A stretch of 64,000 nucleotides of DNA from Motacilla alba alba (lineage: Eukaryota > Chordata > Aves > Passeriformes > Motacillidae), in assembly GCF_015832195.1 (NCBI RefSeq), contig NC_052031.1:11967850-12031849 (forward strand), given 5' to 3'. Positions 11,724 through 47,169 of this stretch are shown piece by piece (the stretch's first letter is position 1; each line of letters starts with the position of its first letter). The notes below the pieces were generated by a model that did not search any database, was not told where the DNA came from, and saw only the letters and a program-made list of their open reading frames with translations. The translations under genes were made by a program, and so were the position numbers.

Positions 11724-11765
11724 AACAAGTGCTGCCCAGGACTGGTTTTCGAGCGGATTCCTCTG
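11724..11765 (+). CDS. MAGI2: MAGI2 alternative 42-nt exon before PDZ3 (GC donor)
   Basis: Micro-exon with phase 1 in and phase 1 out. Together with the C that ends the preceding exon it reads QQVLPRTGFRADSSG and then enters the PDYKEL of PDZ3. This closely resembles the 14-residue segment present or absent in known MAGI2 isoforms at the same place. The acceptor is CCATTTTCCTATTCAG. The donor is CTCTG|GCAAGT: position +2 is C, so this is a GC-AG intron, but the remaining positions match the consensus well. GC donors are a known minority class, often linked to alternative splicing. The 42-nt length lets the exon be skipped without a frame change, replacing the insert by one Arg. The insert is basic and Ser-containing. 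Its functional effect is unknown to me. Confidence 0.9.
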
Positions 11766-17001: not shown

Positions 17002-17093
17002 GTCCCGATTACAAAGAGCTGGATGTGCACCTTCGGAGAATGGAGTCTGGCTTTGGCTTCAGGATCCTGGGAGGAGATGAGCCTGGGCAGCCT
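17002..17093 (+). CDS. MAGI2: MAGI2 exon: N-terminal half of PDZ3
   Basis: This 92-nt exon enters in phase 1 and leaves in phase 0. After the split codon it reads [19 protein letters not shown] and then [15 protein letters not shown] is the PDZ carboxylate-binding loop, corresponding to the GLGF motif, followed by strand beta2 (RILGG). The acceptor is TTTAAACCAG|GTCCC, with a rather weak pyrimidine tract, and the donor is CCT|GTGAGT. The exon joins directly to ILIGAV in the next exon, giving an uninterrupted PDZ fold. PDZ3 of MAGI proteins binds C-terminal peptides of membrane partners. The upstream in-frame stretch before the AG is open only by chance. Confidence 0.97.
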
Positions 17094-22754: not shown

Positions 22755-22947
22755 ATTCTCATCGGAGCAGTGATTGCCATGGGCTCAGCAGACCGAGATG
22801 GTCGTCTCCATCCTGGTGATGAGCTGGTGTATGTGGATGGGATTCCAGTGGCCGGCAAAACCCACCGATACGTGATTGACCTTATGCATAACGCCGCCCG
22901 AAACGGGCAGGTGAATCTTACTGTGAGGAGAAAGGTGCTACCCACGG
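22755..22947 (+). CDS. MAGI2: MAGI2 exon: C-terminal half of PDZ3
   Basis: This 193-nt exon enters in phase 0 and leaves in phase 1. It begins [20 protein letters not shown], continues [19 protein letters not shown] and ends [10 protein letters not shown] plus one G. It supplies the rest of PDZ3: the GDELVYVDG core (strand beta4 and turn), helix alphaB beginning [10 protein letters not shown], and the last strand [10 protein letters not shown]. His at the start of alphaB is the hallmark of class I PDZ domains, which prefer S/T-X-hydrophobic C-termini. The acceptor is GCTGCCTAG and the donor is ACGG|GTGAGT. The last residues (VLPT) begin the disordered linker. In the constitutive transcript the split codon is completed by GA of exon 26004-26252 (Gly). 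Confidence 0.97.
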
Positions 22948-23919
22948 GTGAGTGAAGGCTGGGAAAGGTGAAAGGAAAAACAGATCCCAATGTTGGCAGC
23001 ACAAACCGGTGCTGTTTGTAAATAATAGAGGAAATCAAAGTGAATGTTTGTGTCATTTTGAGGAAAGAATAATTGTAAATATGTGTCCCTTGTTCCTCTG
23101 ACAAAAATACTGCAACTGAGTGTTGTTTCCTTCAGAAGTGAAAACATACTGGCAACCCTGGTGTGGTGATCATAAGTGCTCTGGGTTTGTTCCATGCTGT
23201 CTTGGTCTGTGCTGTCTCCTTTTGTTCACTTTTGGGACTAAACATTCACCTAAGTTAAAGCCATTTGAGCTGACTGTGTCAATAAGAGAAAGGCTCAAAG
23301 ACTGTTAACTGTTTTAGGGCAGGAATTCATTTCACTCTTATATGTGTTAAAAGCCCATTTCTGGTCTCACTGATGCCATCTGGAATTTCCCACTGAACTG
23401 CAATAAAAGCTGGCTGAAAATCTTCTGTAGGGCACAAGGGGTGGATTCTTCTGTCAAGCAGACATATTCAGAAAATGAACCTGAACAACTATGAAGTATT
23501 TGTAGTAAATTAGATGTTTAGACTAACTCAGTCTCAATTGCCGAAAAACATCGGAACTTTGAAAAATGTGTGTGGCAGCATCTATTAAAGCTTTAATGGG
23601 AGAATTTGATGACCTTTCATTAGAACCATTGCTTACTTGAGGAAAGAAGTTTATTTAATAACTTTTAAAACATTTTTGGTGAGTACGCTTGTCTGAGGTA
23701 CCAGAAATGAGCAAAACCACATTCCCAGCCTGTACTGTCTTCTGCCTGCCCATGCCCTAGATCCACTGTCACTGCCTGCGCCGTTCCCCTTCGCTCCTGT
23801 GCCAAAAAAGCCGCCCTCCCACTCACCTTCGTCTTCGCAGTCCCCCTCCCACTGCGGCACCGCAGCTCCCTGCCAGCCGTGCTCCTGCAGGACTGACTTT
23901 CTTCTGTTACTGACTCCAG

Positions 23920-24006
23920 AGTCCTCCAGCCAGAAAGGTGCCCCTGCGCCTGGTGCGACGCCCCCTCGCAGCTCCCCCAGCGCGAGGAAAATGGCCAATA
24001 ACCAAG
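23920..24006 (+). CDS. MAGI2: Candidate MAGI2 cassette exon, 87 nt (29 codons), in frame
   Basis: A predicted, not established, exon. A CTGAC branch-point-like motif at 23893-23897 is followed by TTTCTTCTGTTACTGACTCCAG, a good pyrimidine tract and acceptor, and the block ends AACCAAG|GTAATG. Its length is divisible by three, and it enters and leaves in phase 1, exactly as the flanking junction requires. In that phase it is open: ESSSQKGAPAPGATPP, then RSSPSARKMANNQ, then Gly from the split codon. The Ser/Pro/Ala-rich composition matches the neighbouring disordered linker between PDZ3 and PDZ4, and GC content jumps relative to surrounding intron. I do not recall this insert from mammalian MAGI2. 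The alternative is a GC-rich intronic island whose open frame is partly a result of composition. Confidence 0.55.
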
Positions 24007-25033
24007 GTAATGACGCCAAGCCCTCGCCGCCAGCACCGCTCCACGCCAGCCGCGACGCCTGCTGCAGGCAAAGCTGGCACAGAGCGGGCGCCCGCCTTTG
24101 CTGCTGCTTGTTAAACATTAAAGCTCTACCAGCAACTCTGGGCTTCTGGTGCCGACAGTAAGCAAGCTGGTAAAACACCTGAAGTTATTCTTGGGCCTTG
24201 AGAGTGCCACACCAGGGAATGTGGCATGTAGCTCATTAATGTTTAAGCATTTCAGGAGCTGAACAGGATTTTAATGTGGTGTGTTACAATGTAAGCTTTG
24301 TGGAAAAATTTAAAACAACTGGTGTTGGGCGTGACTGAAAAATGCTATGCTAATACATCAGGGCAATTGATTCCATGGGAATTTTCACTAGCATGAATGT
24401 ATACAACAGAGGGATCTGGGGTTTTGCTTACCTGTCTGTAGCTGATATACGTATCTTAGGCCTCATCTGGAATTACCATTTTGTACATATACTTACCCAG
24501 ATCTGGAACAGAAATTCACATTTCTCAAGATCTGGAAAACAATTTGCTTAGGAAAATGTGATTTTTGGATTAAAATGCCATTTTTTCACAGGTAGGAGCA
24601 AAATGGATTTTTTCTGATGAGTATCTATTGCACAGTTGACAGTCGAATAGTAGCCATTTAAGCTTTTCCTCCTTTATCATTCTTTTCCTATATTTAATGG
24701 CATTCAATTGCATTCTTTCATGGCCAAGCCAGCTCTTGGTCATTTTACAGGGTAAGAAAATTTCCTTTCTGTTGCAGCCATACTGACACAAACAATATTC
24801 AGCTTTCTGAAACATGACAGCCAGAAAATGAGAACTCTCTTGTCGCTGACTATGGCATTTAGTTGCAGATTTGGTTCAATAACTCTTAGAGATTTTCAGG
24901 AGTATAATAATTGTTTGTTTTTCTTCCTCTTTATACTCTCTAATTACTTTATTTCATAGTTGCAGAAGGACTACTAAAGGACACACCTGACTGAGAAAAC
25001 AACAGCTTGTACTTGGATGCTGTTTATTTTATT

Positions 25034-25948: not shown

Positions 25949-26257
<309 letters not shown>

Positions 26258-38782: not shown

Positions 38783-42724
<3,942 letters not shown>

Positions 42725-42899
42725 AGCTGAACAGCCCAGCCTCGGCCCCCAGCTCGGAGAAGCAGAGCCCCATGGCCCAGCAGCACAGCCCCATGGCCCA
42801 GCAGAGTCCCCTGGCGCAGCAGAGCCCCGTCGCCCAGCACAGCCCCGTGGCCCAGCCTCCGCCTCCACAGCCCCTCCAGCCACAGGGACACGAGAACAG
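42725..42899 (+). CDS. MAGI2: MAGI2 exon: SPxAQQ-repeat linker after PDZ4
   Basis: This 175-nt exon enters in phase 1 and leaves in phase 2. After the split Glu codon it reads LNSPASAPSSEKQSPMAQQH, then further SPMAQQ, SPLAQQ, SPVAQH and SPVAQP units, then PPPPQPLQPQGHEN and the split Ser codon. It is a disordered, very GC-rich Ser/Pro/Gln linker between PDZ4 and PDZ5. The acceptor is CCCATGATGCAG|AGCTG. The donor is AACAG|GTTTTG, which has GT but a poor match at +3 to +6. Because the entry and exit phases differ, skipping this exon would break the frame. The following exon restores SYRSEVKARQDVKPD, which fits MAGI2 exactly. Confidence 0.96.
42766..42858 (+). repeat. MAGI2: Coding tandem repeat, 18-bp unit (SPxAQx)
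   Basis: Five degenerate copies of an 18-nt unit (AGCCCCATGGCCCAGCAG type), the first with one extra CAC codon, encode SPMAQQH, SPMAQQ, SPLAQQ, SPVAQH and SPVAQP. Such a coding minisatellite can change length in frame. Confidence 0.9.
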
Positions 42900-45532
42900 G
42901 TTTTGCATTTTCTCATGGTCTTCTTTTTTTTTTCTTTTTGCCCCTTGTATGTCAGTCTGGAGTCAGGAAGATATTTTTTGTGGTGGGTTGAATCTCTGGT
43001 GTATCATTTACCAGCCAATTTCTCGTGTGTAATGTATGCGTATACATTAGCAAATTTATCTATAATGGAAATCAAATGGTAGGGGGAAAGAAATTTTGTG
43101 GCCAGCTGTATTAAATGCTGTTTATATGAAAAGCACACACAGGCTGTGGGATGATACAAGTTTCTATGACCTCCAATCAACACTATTTAGTCTTTGTATT
43201 ATTTTTTAGCATGTTAAACGTGGCTGATTACACTGACTGTCTTTATGCTAATCTTCAGTAACCAAGACATATCATCAAGATCCTCTTCCCCAAATGATGC
43301 TAGCTACAGGATTGCAACTTTTGTCTTCTGAAAATACTTGAGTTCACTTGTGATTCAGACACTACACCCTTTAATTCTCCTTGCTTAACAGATGTAGTAC
43401 TTTCACTTGCCCAGAATTATTTTCTTTTAATTAGTCATACAAGGAAAATTAGTTTGCCTTATATTTTATTGAGTACTTTCTCCAAAAGTGATCACCTCCT
43501 GGAAGACATATATTTCTGACATAATTCAATATGAAGTTTTCACAAAAGTCATTTCATGCTATTGGAAGTCACTATTAAATATCTGCAAATTGGGAATTTT
43601 CAGATGGGAGAAGCAAACTATATTAATTAAAGTTCCAGAAAGAAATGCTGTAATAATTTTACTGAAAAGTGTAAGCTCTAATTGCTCATGTCACCATTTA
43701 CATATTCAGCAAAAATTACAGTGCCTCCATCTGTGAATAAAAACATCATCTTCTGATATGCAGCTGTGGCCATATATTGGGAACCTGCCTGAAGATGACT
43801 CTTACTTCAGAAAAAGGCCAACTCTTGCTAGTTCACACAGTATTATTTTTCACTAGATTACAGCTGGTTTGTATAGCCACATACATTGTTTCTTTACCAA
43901 AATCAGATTTTAAAACTCTTTGGAATATTAACTAGGTTTTTTTTTTTACTTCCAATATTAAGGCTCAGTATCACAGTACGCCTCACAGTAAGTTTGTTCT
44001 CTATCTTCCTTTTACAGGATCATGATACTGAGTAAAGAAAGTAAGAGGCTTGCATGTATGCATGCAGGCCTACTAATCGTGGCGTCAGTCTATTTTAATC
44101 TTCTCAGAAAAGTCAAAGGGAAATAGTTCTGACTTTTTTGTGTCTGGTTAGTTATTCAGATTATTAAAACTATTGTGTAGGAAGATTAGCCATAATTTCA
44201 CTGTAACTACATTAATAAATTAATGAAATTTTGAAACATATCAGAGAATTTGAAACATTTAAGTTCAGATTACCTTTTTTTATATATAAATCAACATAAT
44301 CAAAAACAATGCTGTCATTTTTTAAGAGTGCAATTTTTGTAATCAATAAGTACATTTCAAAATCTCTTGCAAAGTCTACACATGTCTCTGTGTCTGTATG
44401 TGTCCATGAACAGACATGGTCACTTGGTTGACAGAAAACTTCTAGTCCATGATTAAAGCAGAATTTGAAATGTCTATTTCCTGTACAGGAAAGAAATATT
44501 CCCTTTGGCACCCAGGGAAGAGTGTAAGAACATCCACTCTGTGAACATTTTTGTTAAAATATAACCAAAACCACTATTACAGAATTACCTTGCTAAAAGT
44601 GCTCAGGAGTTTCTTTGTGCCTTCTTTAGCAGACCACATGGCTGAGATAGGGAAGTTTGCCATAAGGAATGCTCTTTACTTCACCCTGAAGTGCCATTAT
44701 GTGCTGATTTCCATGTGCTAAGGGAAATTCCCATCTGAATAAAGTAAATAAGTAGGCACTGTATCTCAGAAAGTCACATTTTCTTTCAAATTTTAGGACC
44801 CATCTCCCTGTAACCATTTACCAGCTAAAGCAATATTTTACTTGTTATTAATTCCTCATAACCAAATTTATTTTCTTTTCACCTTGTGTTATTTCTGTGC
44901 ATAACTACTGACATGAATTTACTGACATAGCGTTTAGCCAGATAGCATCATAGGGAGTGTATAATAGAAATAATACACACTGTAATAACAGATGTTATAT
45001 CAAAGAATACCTTTCATTAAAAAGGTAACAGCTAAGACAAAGAATTTATCCTTTTTTAACCTTAAGAAGCTCACAATAATACTTTATGTCGATGAAAGGG
45101 GATATACACTGGACTGATATTCCACTTATTCTATAGAAATATTAATTTTGGAAAAAAACACTTTATAAACTCAGTGAATTATTTTGTAATGAGTAGAATG
45201 GGTGTTTTCACATGCAGTTTTGTCTTCAAAATAGGCAAAGTGGGAATCAAGATGCTTTTTCTGTTCCTGTCCCTTTGAGTCCAATCCTGATCTCACTGAT
45301 ACAAGCTGGAAAATTGCACAGTATGACCTAAGGGAAAATTGCTTATGCCCATGTTTCAGAAGCACTCACTGTTTTCGGATGCCTCGACTATTTACCCTTG
45401 AGAGTTCTGCTTCCCTGTGAAAACCTGTTCCGTGCAATTTTGCAGCAGGGCTTTCACGCCTCACTGTTGCATGCAATGCATATTCCTAATGGTCTGCTAC
45501 TCTCTGAAACTGAGCCATTGTGCCTTCCTCAG
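42900..45532 (+). other. MAGI2: MAGI2 intron (about 2.6 kb)
   Basis: The intron starts with the weak donor GTTTTG and ends with GTGCCTTCCTCAG. It is AT-rich. No mobile element, RNA gene or other exon was recognised. Confidence 0.7.
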
Positions 45533-45773
45533 CTACAGGTCAGAAGTAAAAGCCAGGCAGGATGTGAAGCCTGACATCCGGCAGCCCCCGTTTACGGACT
45601 ACAGGCAATCCTCCACGGACTACCGCCAGCCCCCGCTGGACTACCGGCACCCGCCGGTGATGGACTACCAGCAGCCCCCGCCGCTCGACTACAGGCAGCC
45701 CCCGCTGATGGACTACAGGCAGCACTCCCCCGACACCAGGCAGTACCCCCTGTCCGAGTACAGGCAGCCCCAG
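45533..45773 (+). CDS. MAGI2: MAGI2 exon: DYRQPP-repeat linker before PDZ5
   Basis: This 241-nt exon enters in phase 2 and leaves in phase 0. It reads YRSEVKARQDVKPDIRQPPF, then about eight tandem DYRQPP-like units (TDYRQSS, TDYRQPPL, DYRHPPVM, DYQQPPPL, DYRQPPLM, DYRQHSP, DTRQYPLS, EYRQPQ). The exon is GC-rich with strong C/G third positions. It encodes a Pro/Tyr-rich, probably disordered segment, and the repeated tyrosines and prolines could act as short docking motifs (inference). The acceptor is TGCCTTCCTCAG and the donor is CCCCAG|GTACAG. From memory, mammalian MAGI2 has one fewer unit near the start of the array, the TDYRQSS copy being the extra one here. The exon joins in phase 0 to DFDYFTVD of PDZ5. 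Confidence 0.97.
45594..45773 (+). repeat. MAGI2: Coding tandem repeat, 21-24-bp unit (DYRQPP)
   Basis: About eight head-to-tail units of 18-24 nt, each starting GACTAC or a variant and encoding DYRQPP with one- to two-residue spacers. Unit similarity decays toward the 3' end. Confidence 0.88.

Positions 45774-47169
<1,396 letters not shown>

What the first reader, a model, noticed from the sequence alone, without database searches (positions are those of the whole stretch)
23890..24012. Unannotated-looking 29-codon cassette exon between PDZ3 and PDZ4 of MAGI2
The block has a CTGAC branch-point-like motif, a pyrimidine tract ending ACTCCAG, an 87-nt open segment and a GTAATG donor. It enters and leaves in phase 1, identical to the flanking junction, so inclusion adds 29 Ser/Pro/Ala-rich residues with no frame change. 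It lies in a sharp GC-rich island within AT-rich intron. I do not recall it from mammalian MAGI2, so it may be an avian or tissue-specific isoform that alters linker length between two PDZ domains.
Basis: partly seen in the sequence, partly recalled or inferred. Interest (0 to 1): 0.75.

Follow-up and report, generated by a model that had tools for sequence, protein, structure and literature searches.

The report
Real, already annotated bird MAGI2 exon
The spotted block is a genuine small protein-coding exon of the bird scaffold gene MAGI2, kept intact from ostrich and emu to songbirds, but it is already present in public bird gene models, so it is a correct observation and not a new one.

Summary
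The block is real. Window 23920-24006 is an 87-nt, phase 1/1 exon between the exon ending PDZ3 (22755-22947) and the next (26004-26252). It inserts ESSSQKGAPAPGATPPRSSPSARKMANNQ. It is not unannotated: the joined window protein, insert included, matches three predicted Motacilla MAGI2 isoforms over 533 of 533 residues. Of 155 proteins retrieved in three searches, 153 carry a 29-aa insert at this place, from ostrich, emu, goose and guineafowl to songbirds, in 21 variants with 14 invariant positions. The two without it are Bos and Acipenser proteins. A query of Bos flanks plus insert listed no named mammal with the insert in its best 120. All 20 full-length bearers found were birds, but 90% clustering could hide crocodiles or turtles. 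Splice signals alone would not have proved it: the antisense strand gave 4 equally good candidates. Most likely it is an alternatively used linker exon that lengthens a disordered PDZ3-PDZ4 linker and adds proline-directed phosphorylation sites. Skipping in birds, tissue pattern and function were not shown. Six paper searches listed no paper evidently about it.

The parts
22755..22947 (+). MAGI2 exon encoding the second half of PDZ3 (PDZ0-5 numbering); ends in phase 1
   Evidence: best solved relative 1uep, a MAGI-2 PDZ domain
23893..23919 (+). branch-point-like CTGAC, pyrimidine tract and CAG acceptor
   Evidence: acceptor score 3.27 against 0.16 to 5.14 for the other nine exons (recalled matrix)
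23920..24006 (+). the finding: 87-nt phase 1/1 exon encoding ESSSQKGAPAPGATPPRSSPSARKMANNQ
   Evidence: insert present in 153 of 155 retrieved proteins
24007..24012 (+). donor GTAATG (T at +5, weaker than consensus)
   Evidence: score 2.59; the eight other GT donors -3.5 to 7.6
23700..24110 (.). GC-rich, CpG-rich island around the exon (GC 0.635, CpG obs/exp 0.68)
26004..26252 (+). next MAGI2 exon: rest of PDZ3-PDZ4 linker and start of PDZ4; acceptor TAGGAG is a possible tandem (NAGNAG) site
   Evidence: three Athene isoforms lack one Gly exactly there
11724..11765 (+). 42-nt exon encoding QQVLPRTGFRADSS, the known 14-aa MAGI2 cassette between PDZ2 and PDZ3; GC donor
   Evidence: present or absent between bird models; known cassette: PMC8428372 figure legend

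Best explanation
It is a genuine coding exon of MAGI2, conserved across birds and already in public bird gene models, probably used as a cassette. Shown: exon boundaries and phase, the identical annotated 29-aa peptide, the intact 29-aa length in 153 retrieved inserts, and direct joining of the PDZ3-exon and next-exon peptides in the Bos and Acipenser proteins. Inferred: inclusion is regulated (symmetric phase, donor without G at +5), and it works by lengthening the linker between PDZ3 and PDZ4 from about 57 to about 86 residues. The inserted peptide is Ser/Pro-rich, probably disordered, and holds a TPPR site (fits the [ST]Px[RK] pattern, recalled, of CDK-type kinases) and an invariant SSP site, so it may let kinases tune spacing or partner binding of the two PDZ domains.
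For: Window exons joined with the block give 533/533 identity to P0002-P0004 (Motacilla isoforms X12, X10, X9). 118 of the 120 listed hits carry it, as do all 33 proteins first met and all 20 hits. All 153 inserts are exactly 29 aa; 21 variants; Q5, K6, P11, T14-P16, S18-P20, R23-K24, A26, N28-Q29 invariant. Names come from NCBI, nr, UniRef and EukProt listings; one in a different style ('Magi2 isoform A' [Columba livia], P0057) suggests more than one annotation pipeline (inference). [ST]Px[RK] is kept in 151 of 153 inserts, SSP in 153 of 153.
Against: No RNA reads were available. Predicted models can copy one another by protein alignment, so annotation in many species is not independent proof of transcription. 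All three queries contained the insert, so insert-less bird isoforms would rank low: the data do not show that birds ever skip it. The insert varies more than its surroundings: 14 of 29 positions invariant against 42 of 54 in the constitutive linker. The TPPR site is lost in guineafowl P0132 and in P0135 (probably chicken). Splice signals alone are near chance level.
Confidence: 0.93

Rival explanations
1. The exon is coding but constitutive in birds: always included, so birds simply have a longer linker and there is no isoform switch.
For: Every retrieved protein except the Bos and Acipenser ones carries it (153 of 155); its splice scores lie within the range of the window's other exons.
Against: The queries were built with the insert and favour insert bearers, so this is biased. 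The donor lacks G at +5 and the exon is symmetric, both common in skipped exons (established knowledge). Isoform numbers missing from the listings (for example Motacilla X9, X10, X12 seen, X11 not) leave room for insert-less models; weak inference.
Confidence: 0.2
2. Annotation artefact: a GC-rich intronic island whose chance splice-like signals were modelled as an exon in one species and carried to others by protein alignment.
For: The splice signals alone are near chance level (4 such candidates on the antisense strand), and open frames are common in this island.
Against: 29-aa length without indels in all 153 inserts, including ostrich, emu, goose and guineafowl, with 14 invariant positions.
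Confidence: 0.04
3. The island acts mainly as DNA, for example an intragenic CpG island, promoter or enhancer, and coding is secondary.
For: CpG observed/expected 0.68 in AT-rich intron.
Against: The conserved protein-level pattern and the exact exon edges are not expected of a purely regulatory element. The DNA of other birds could not be compared here.
Confidence: 0.05

Closest known systems
Predicted bird MAGI2 isoforms with the insert (for example P0002-P0004 Motacilla; P0124 Anser; P0140 Dromaius; P0155 Struthio)
   Same: Same 29-aa insert at the same junction; Motacilla identical to the window over 533 residues
   Different: These are gene models; in many other birds the insert differs by a few residues. 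No paper describing the exon turned up in six searches
MAGI2 14-aa cassette between PDZ2 and PDZ3 (isoform 1 against isoform 2; PMC8428372 figure legend)
   Same: Small in-frame, phase 1 exon in an inter-PDZ linker of the same gene; also in this window (11724-11765)
   Different: Different linker and sequence; GC donor here; described for MAGI2 isoforms 1 and 2
MAGI1 28-aa insertion upstream of PDZ3 (alpha region; PMC8428372 figure legend)
   Same: In-frame inter-domain insertion of similar length in a paralogue
   Different: Lies before PDZ3, not after it; its sequence was not compared here

Membership tests
MAGI2 coding exon | canonical acceptor and donor at the edges | tested here: met
   CAG|AGT and AAG|GTAATG
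MAGI2 coding exon | in frame with both neighbours | tested here: met
   phase 1/1, 87 nt, joined protein open over 533 aa
MAGI2 coding exon | present in annotated MAGI2 proteins | tested here: met
   533/533 identity to Motacilla models
cassette (skipped) exon | isoforms with and without the exon in the same species | tested here: inconclusive
   only insert-bearing bird models were retrieved, by design of the queries; the insert-less form was seen in Bos P0001 and Acipenser P0055
cassette (skipped) exon | inclusion and exclusion junction reads | not testable with these tools
   no RNA-seq available
bird-specific exon | absent from crocodiles, turtles, lizards and mammals | tested here: inconclusive
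   no named mammal with the insert in the best 120; 20 of 20 full-length bearers avian by name; lists capped at 120 and one 90% cluster holds 485 members that were not visible

The most novel reading that the evidence does not exclude
The exon arose, or survived, only on the bird line: a GC-rich piece of intron became a linker exon before the split of ostrich and emu from other birds and was then kept, giving birds a PDZ3-PDZ4 spacing and phosphorylation switch in a synaptic and podocyte scaffold that mammals lack.
Probability: 0.35. Interest if true: 0.4.

Novelty: already known. Interest (0 to 1): 0.2.

Why it matters
It shows that a tool-less reading of raw sequence found a true 87-nt exon correctly to the base. 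Biologically, a lineage-restricted linker exon in MAGI2 would be a small, testable case of how scaffold proteins diverge between birds and mammals, but the exon itself is already in the databases.

Tried and rejected
Chance test of splice signals: not decisive, kept as a caution. It rests on a weight matrix recalled from memory, not a trained model.

Own-genome search: the 141-base stretch 23880-24020 has one match, itself, so nothing suggests a dispersed repeat at that sensitivity. Requests for relatives of the PDZ3 exon (to reach MAGI1 and MAGI3), of the exon peptide, of the whole island and of the PDZ4 part in the own genome did not complete, so paralogous linker exons were not tested.

A putative 15-nt microexon (for ASHYT/ASHYA-like peptides of some birds, between 39122 and 42725) was sought by pattern in the window: no match with up to 1 mismatch.

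Short linear motifs: no SH3 class I or II and no PPxY pattern in any of the 21 variants (patterns recalled). Structure prediction was not run; a short Ser/Pro-rich linker would not give an informative model.

Papers: six searches (one search found no paper, and searches listed 30 of 41, 15 of 30 and 10 of 16 papers). None of the listed titles or abstract starts is evidently about this exon. I read 12 of the 16 matching places of PMC8428372; of all other papers I saw only the search listing.

Full report
What is there. The window lies in a 1.07-Gb assembly and holds at least ten exons of MAGI2 on the + strand, counting the block: 1345-1534, 11724-11765, 17002-17093, 22755-22947, 23920-24006 (the finding), 26004-26252, 38937-39122, 42725-42899, 45533-45773 and 46996-47139. 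Joined in order they read open for 533 residues with the block and remain in frame without it.

The block itself. 23920-24006 is 87 nt, begins after ...TTACTGACTCCAG, ends at AAG|GTAATG, and is phase 1 on both sides. It adds ESSSQKGAPAPGATPPRSSPSARKMANNQ between ...RRKVLPT and GEPCPENG.... It sits in a GC-rich island (GC 0.635, CpG observed/expected 0.68, against 0.381 and 0.126 for the window).

Is it more than chance? From the splice signals alone, hardly. Using recalled splice-site weights, the block's acceptor (3.27) and donor (2.59) fall inside the range of the other exons (nine acceptors 0.16 to 5.14; eight GT donors -3.5 to 7.6). At those thresholds the sense strand of the window has 6 phase-1 open candidates: the block, a nested 33-nt form, real exon 38937-39122, a variant from the real acceptor 42725, and two others. 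The antisense strand has 4. An open frame is also cheap here: an antisense frame is open for 177 aa.

What settles it. A protein search with the joined sequence, scored over PDZ3, insert and PDZ4, gave 2780 hits, of which the best 120 were listed. 118 of these 120 carry the 29-aa insert; the two that do not are a Bos protein (P0001) and an Acipenser protein (P0055). The window protein is identical over 533 of 533 residues to three Motacilla predicted isoforms, X12, X10 and X9 (P0002-P0004); the window is therefore Motacilla or a very close relative (inference). So the exon, with these exact edges, is already in public gene models.

How old and how constrained. Over the three searches I hold 155 proteins; 153 carry the insert, all 29 aa long, in 21 variants. 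The organism names are cut short in the listings and completed by me; some rows show none. Those shown include ostrich, emu, goose, guineafowl, pigeon, parrots, owls, penguins, cranes, cuckoos and many songbirds. P0135 (XP_015131235.1, no organism shown) is probably chicken: its insert differs from guineafowl P0132 at one residue. For conservation I used the 141 of 153 whose flanks fitted one pattern, 38 distinct regions (37 for the part after the insert): 14 of 29 insert positions are invariant, against 79 of 83 in PDZ3, 42 of 54 in the constitutive linker and 28 of 28 in the PDZ4 part. It is constrained, but less than its surroundings. Against the window, the guineafowl insert has 22 of 29 identical residues and the ostrich insert 24 of 29.

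Is it bird-specific? Open. A chimeric query of Bos flanks plus the insert should favour mammals with the insert. Of the 120 listed of its 3387 hits, one is the Bos protein itself, without the insert; the other 119 carry it, and those whose organism is shown are birds. A search scored on the 43 residues around the insert, limited by length to proteins of about 1400 aa or more, found 20 hits among 21 candidates, all birds by name; the one cut to 'Poda' is 97% identical to the Strigops protein. But the database is clustered at 90% identity: the goose representative P0124 stands for 485 sequences that I could not see, and crocodile or turtle proteins could be among them. No reptile genome was available.

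How it most likely works (inferred). The insert starts a few residues after the last strand of PDZ3; the PDZ3 exon matches the solved MAGI-2 PDZ structure 1uep. Inclusion stretches the PDZ3-PDZ4 linker from about 57 residues (54 counted plus LPT) to about 86. The added peptide has no SH3 or PPxY motif but keeps a TP site and an SSP site in all 153 copies and a [ST]Px[RK] site in 151 of 153 (motif meanings recalled). A regulated, phosphorylatable spacer is the most likely role. Skipping in birds is not shown: all my queries carried the insert and so favour bearers.

Compared with what is known. A review's figure legend (PMC8428372, passages read) describes a 14-aa MAGI2 insertion between PDZ2 and PDZ3 and a 28-aa MAGI1 insertion upstream of PDZ3; the passages I read mention none between PDZ3 and PDZ4 of MAGI2. 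Six paper searches listed no title or abstract start evidently about this exon. So it is known to annotation and, as far as these searches reach, not described in print.

Not done. Paralogue comparison with MAGI1 and MAGI3 in the same genome was requested repeatedly and never answered (listed in Tried and rejected). No RNA, no other bird DNA and no reptile DNA could be examined.

Noticed in passing
11724-11765: The known 14-aa MAGI2 cassette exon (QQVLPRTGFRADSS) ends at a GC donor (CTG|GCAAGT) instead of GT, in this bird.
   Followed up: partly
26000-26006: Acceptor TAGGAG of the next exon is a possible tandem site; three Athene isoforms (P0141, P0143, P0146) lack one Gly exactly at this junction.
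   Followed up: partly
42690-42725: Bird models differ in what stands between PQE and ELNSP at this exon's start (nothing, A, ASHYT, GVPSPSPHEA and others), which suggests shifting acceptors; in this window an upstream AG would run into a TAA.
   Followed up: partly
42897-42905: Donor CAG|GTTTTG of exon 42725-42899 scores very low (-3.5) although the exon's peptide is in the Motacilla models.
   Followed up: no
protein P0140 residues about 410-452: Emu P0140 carries a 43-aa insert (VESSSSTLPRPKHAH...) after PMQAQGFR, before PDZ1, that goose P0124 lacks; Aquila P0136 has a similar stretch.
   Followed up: no
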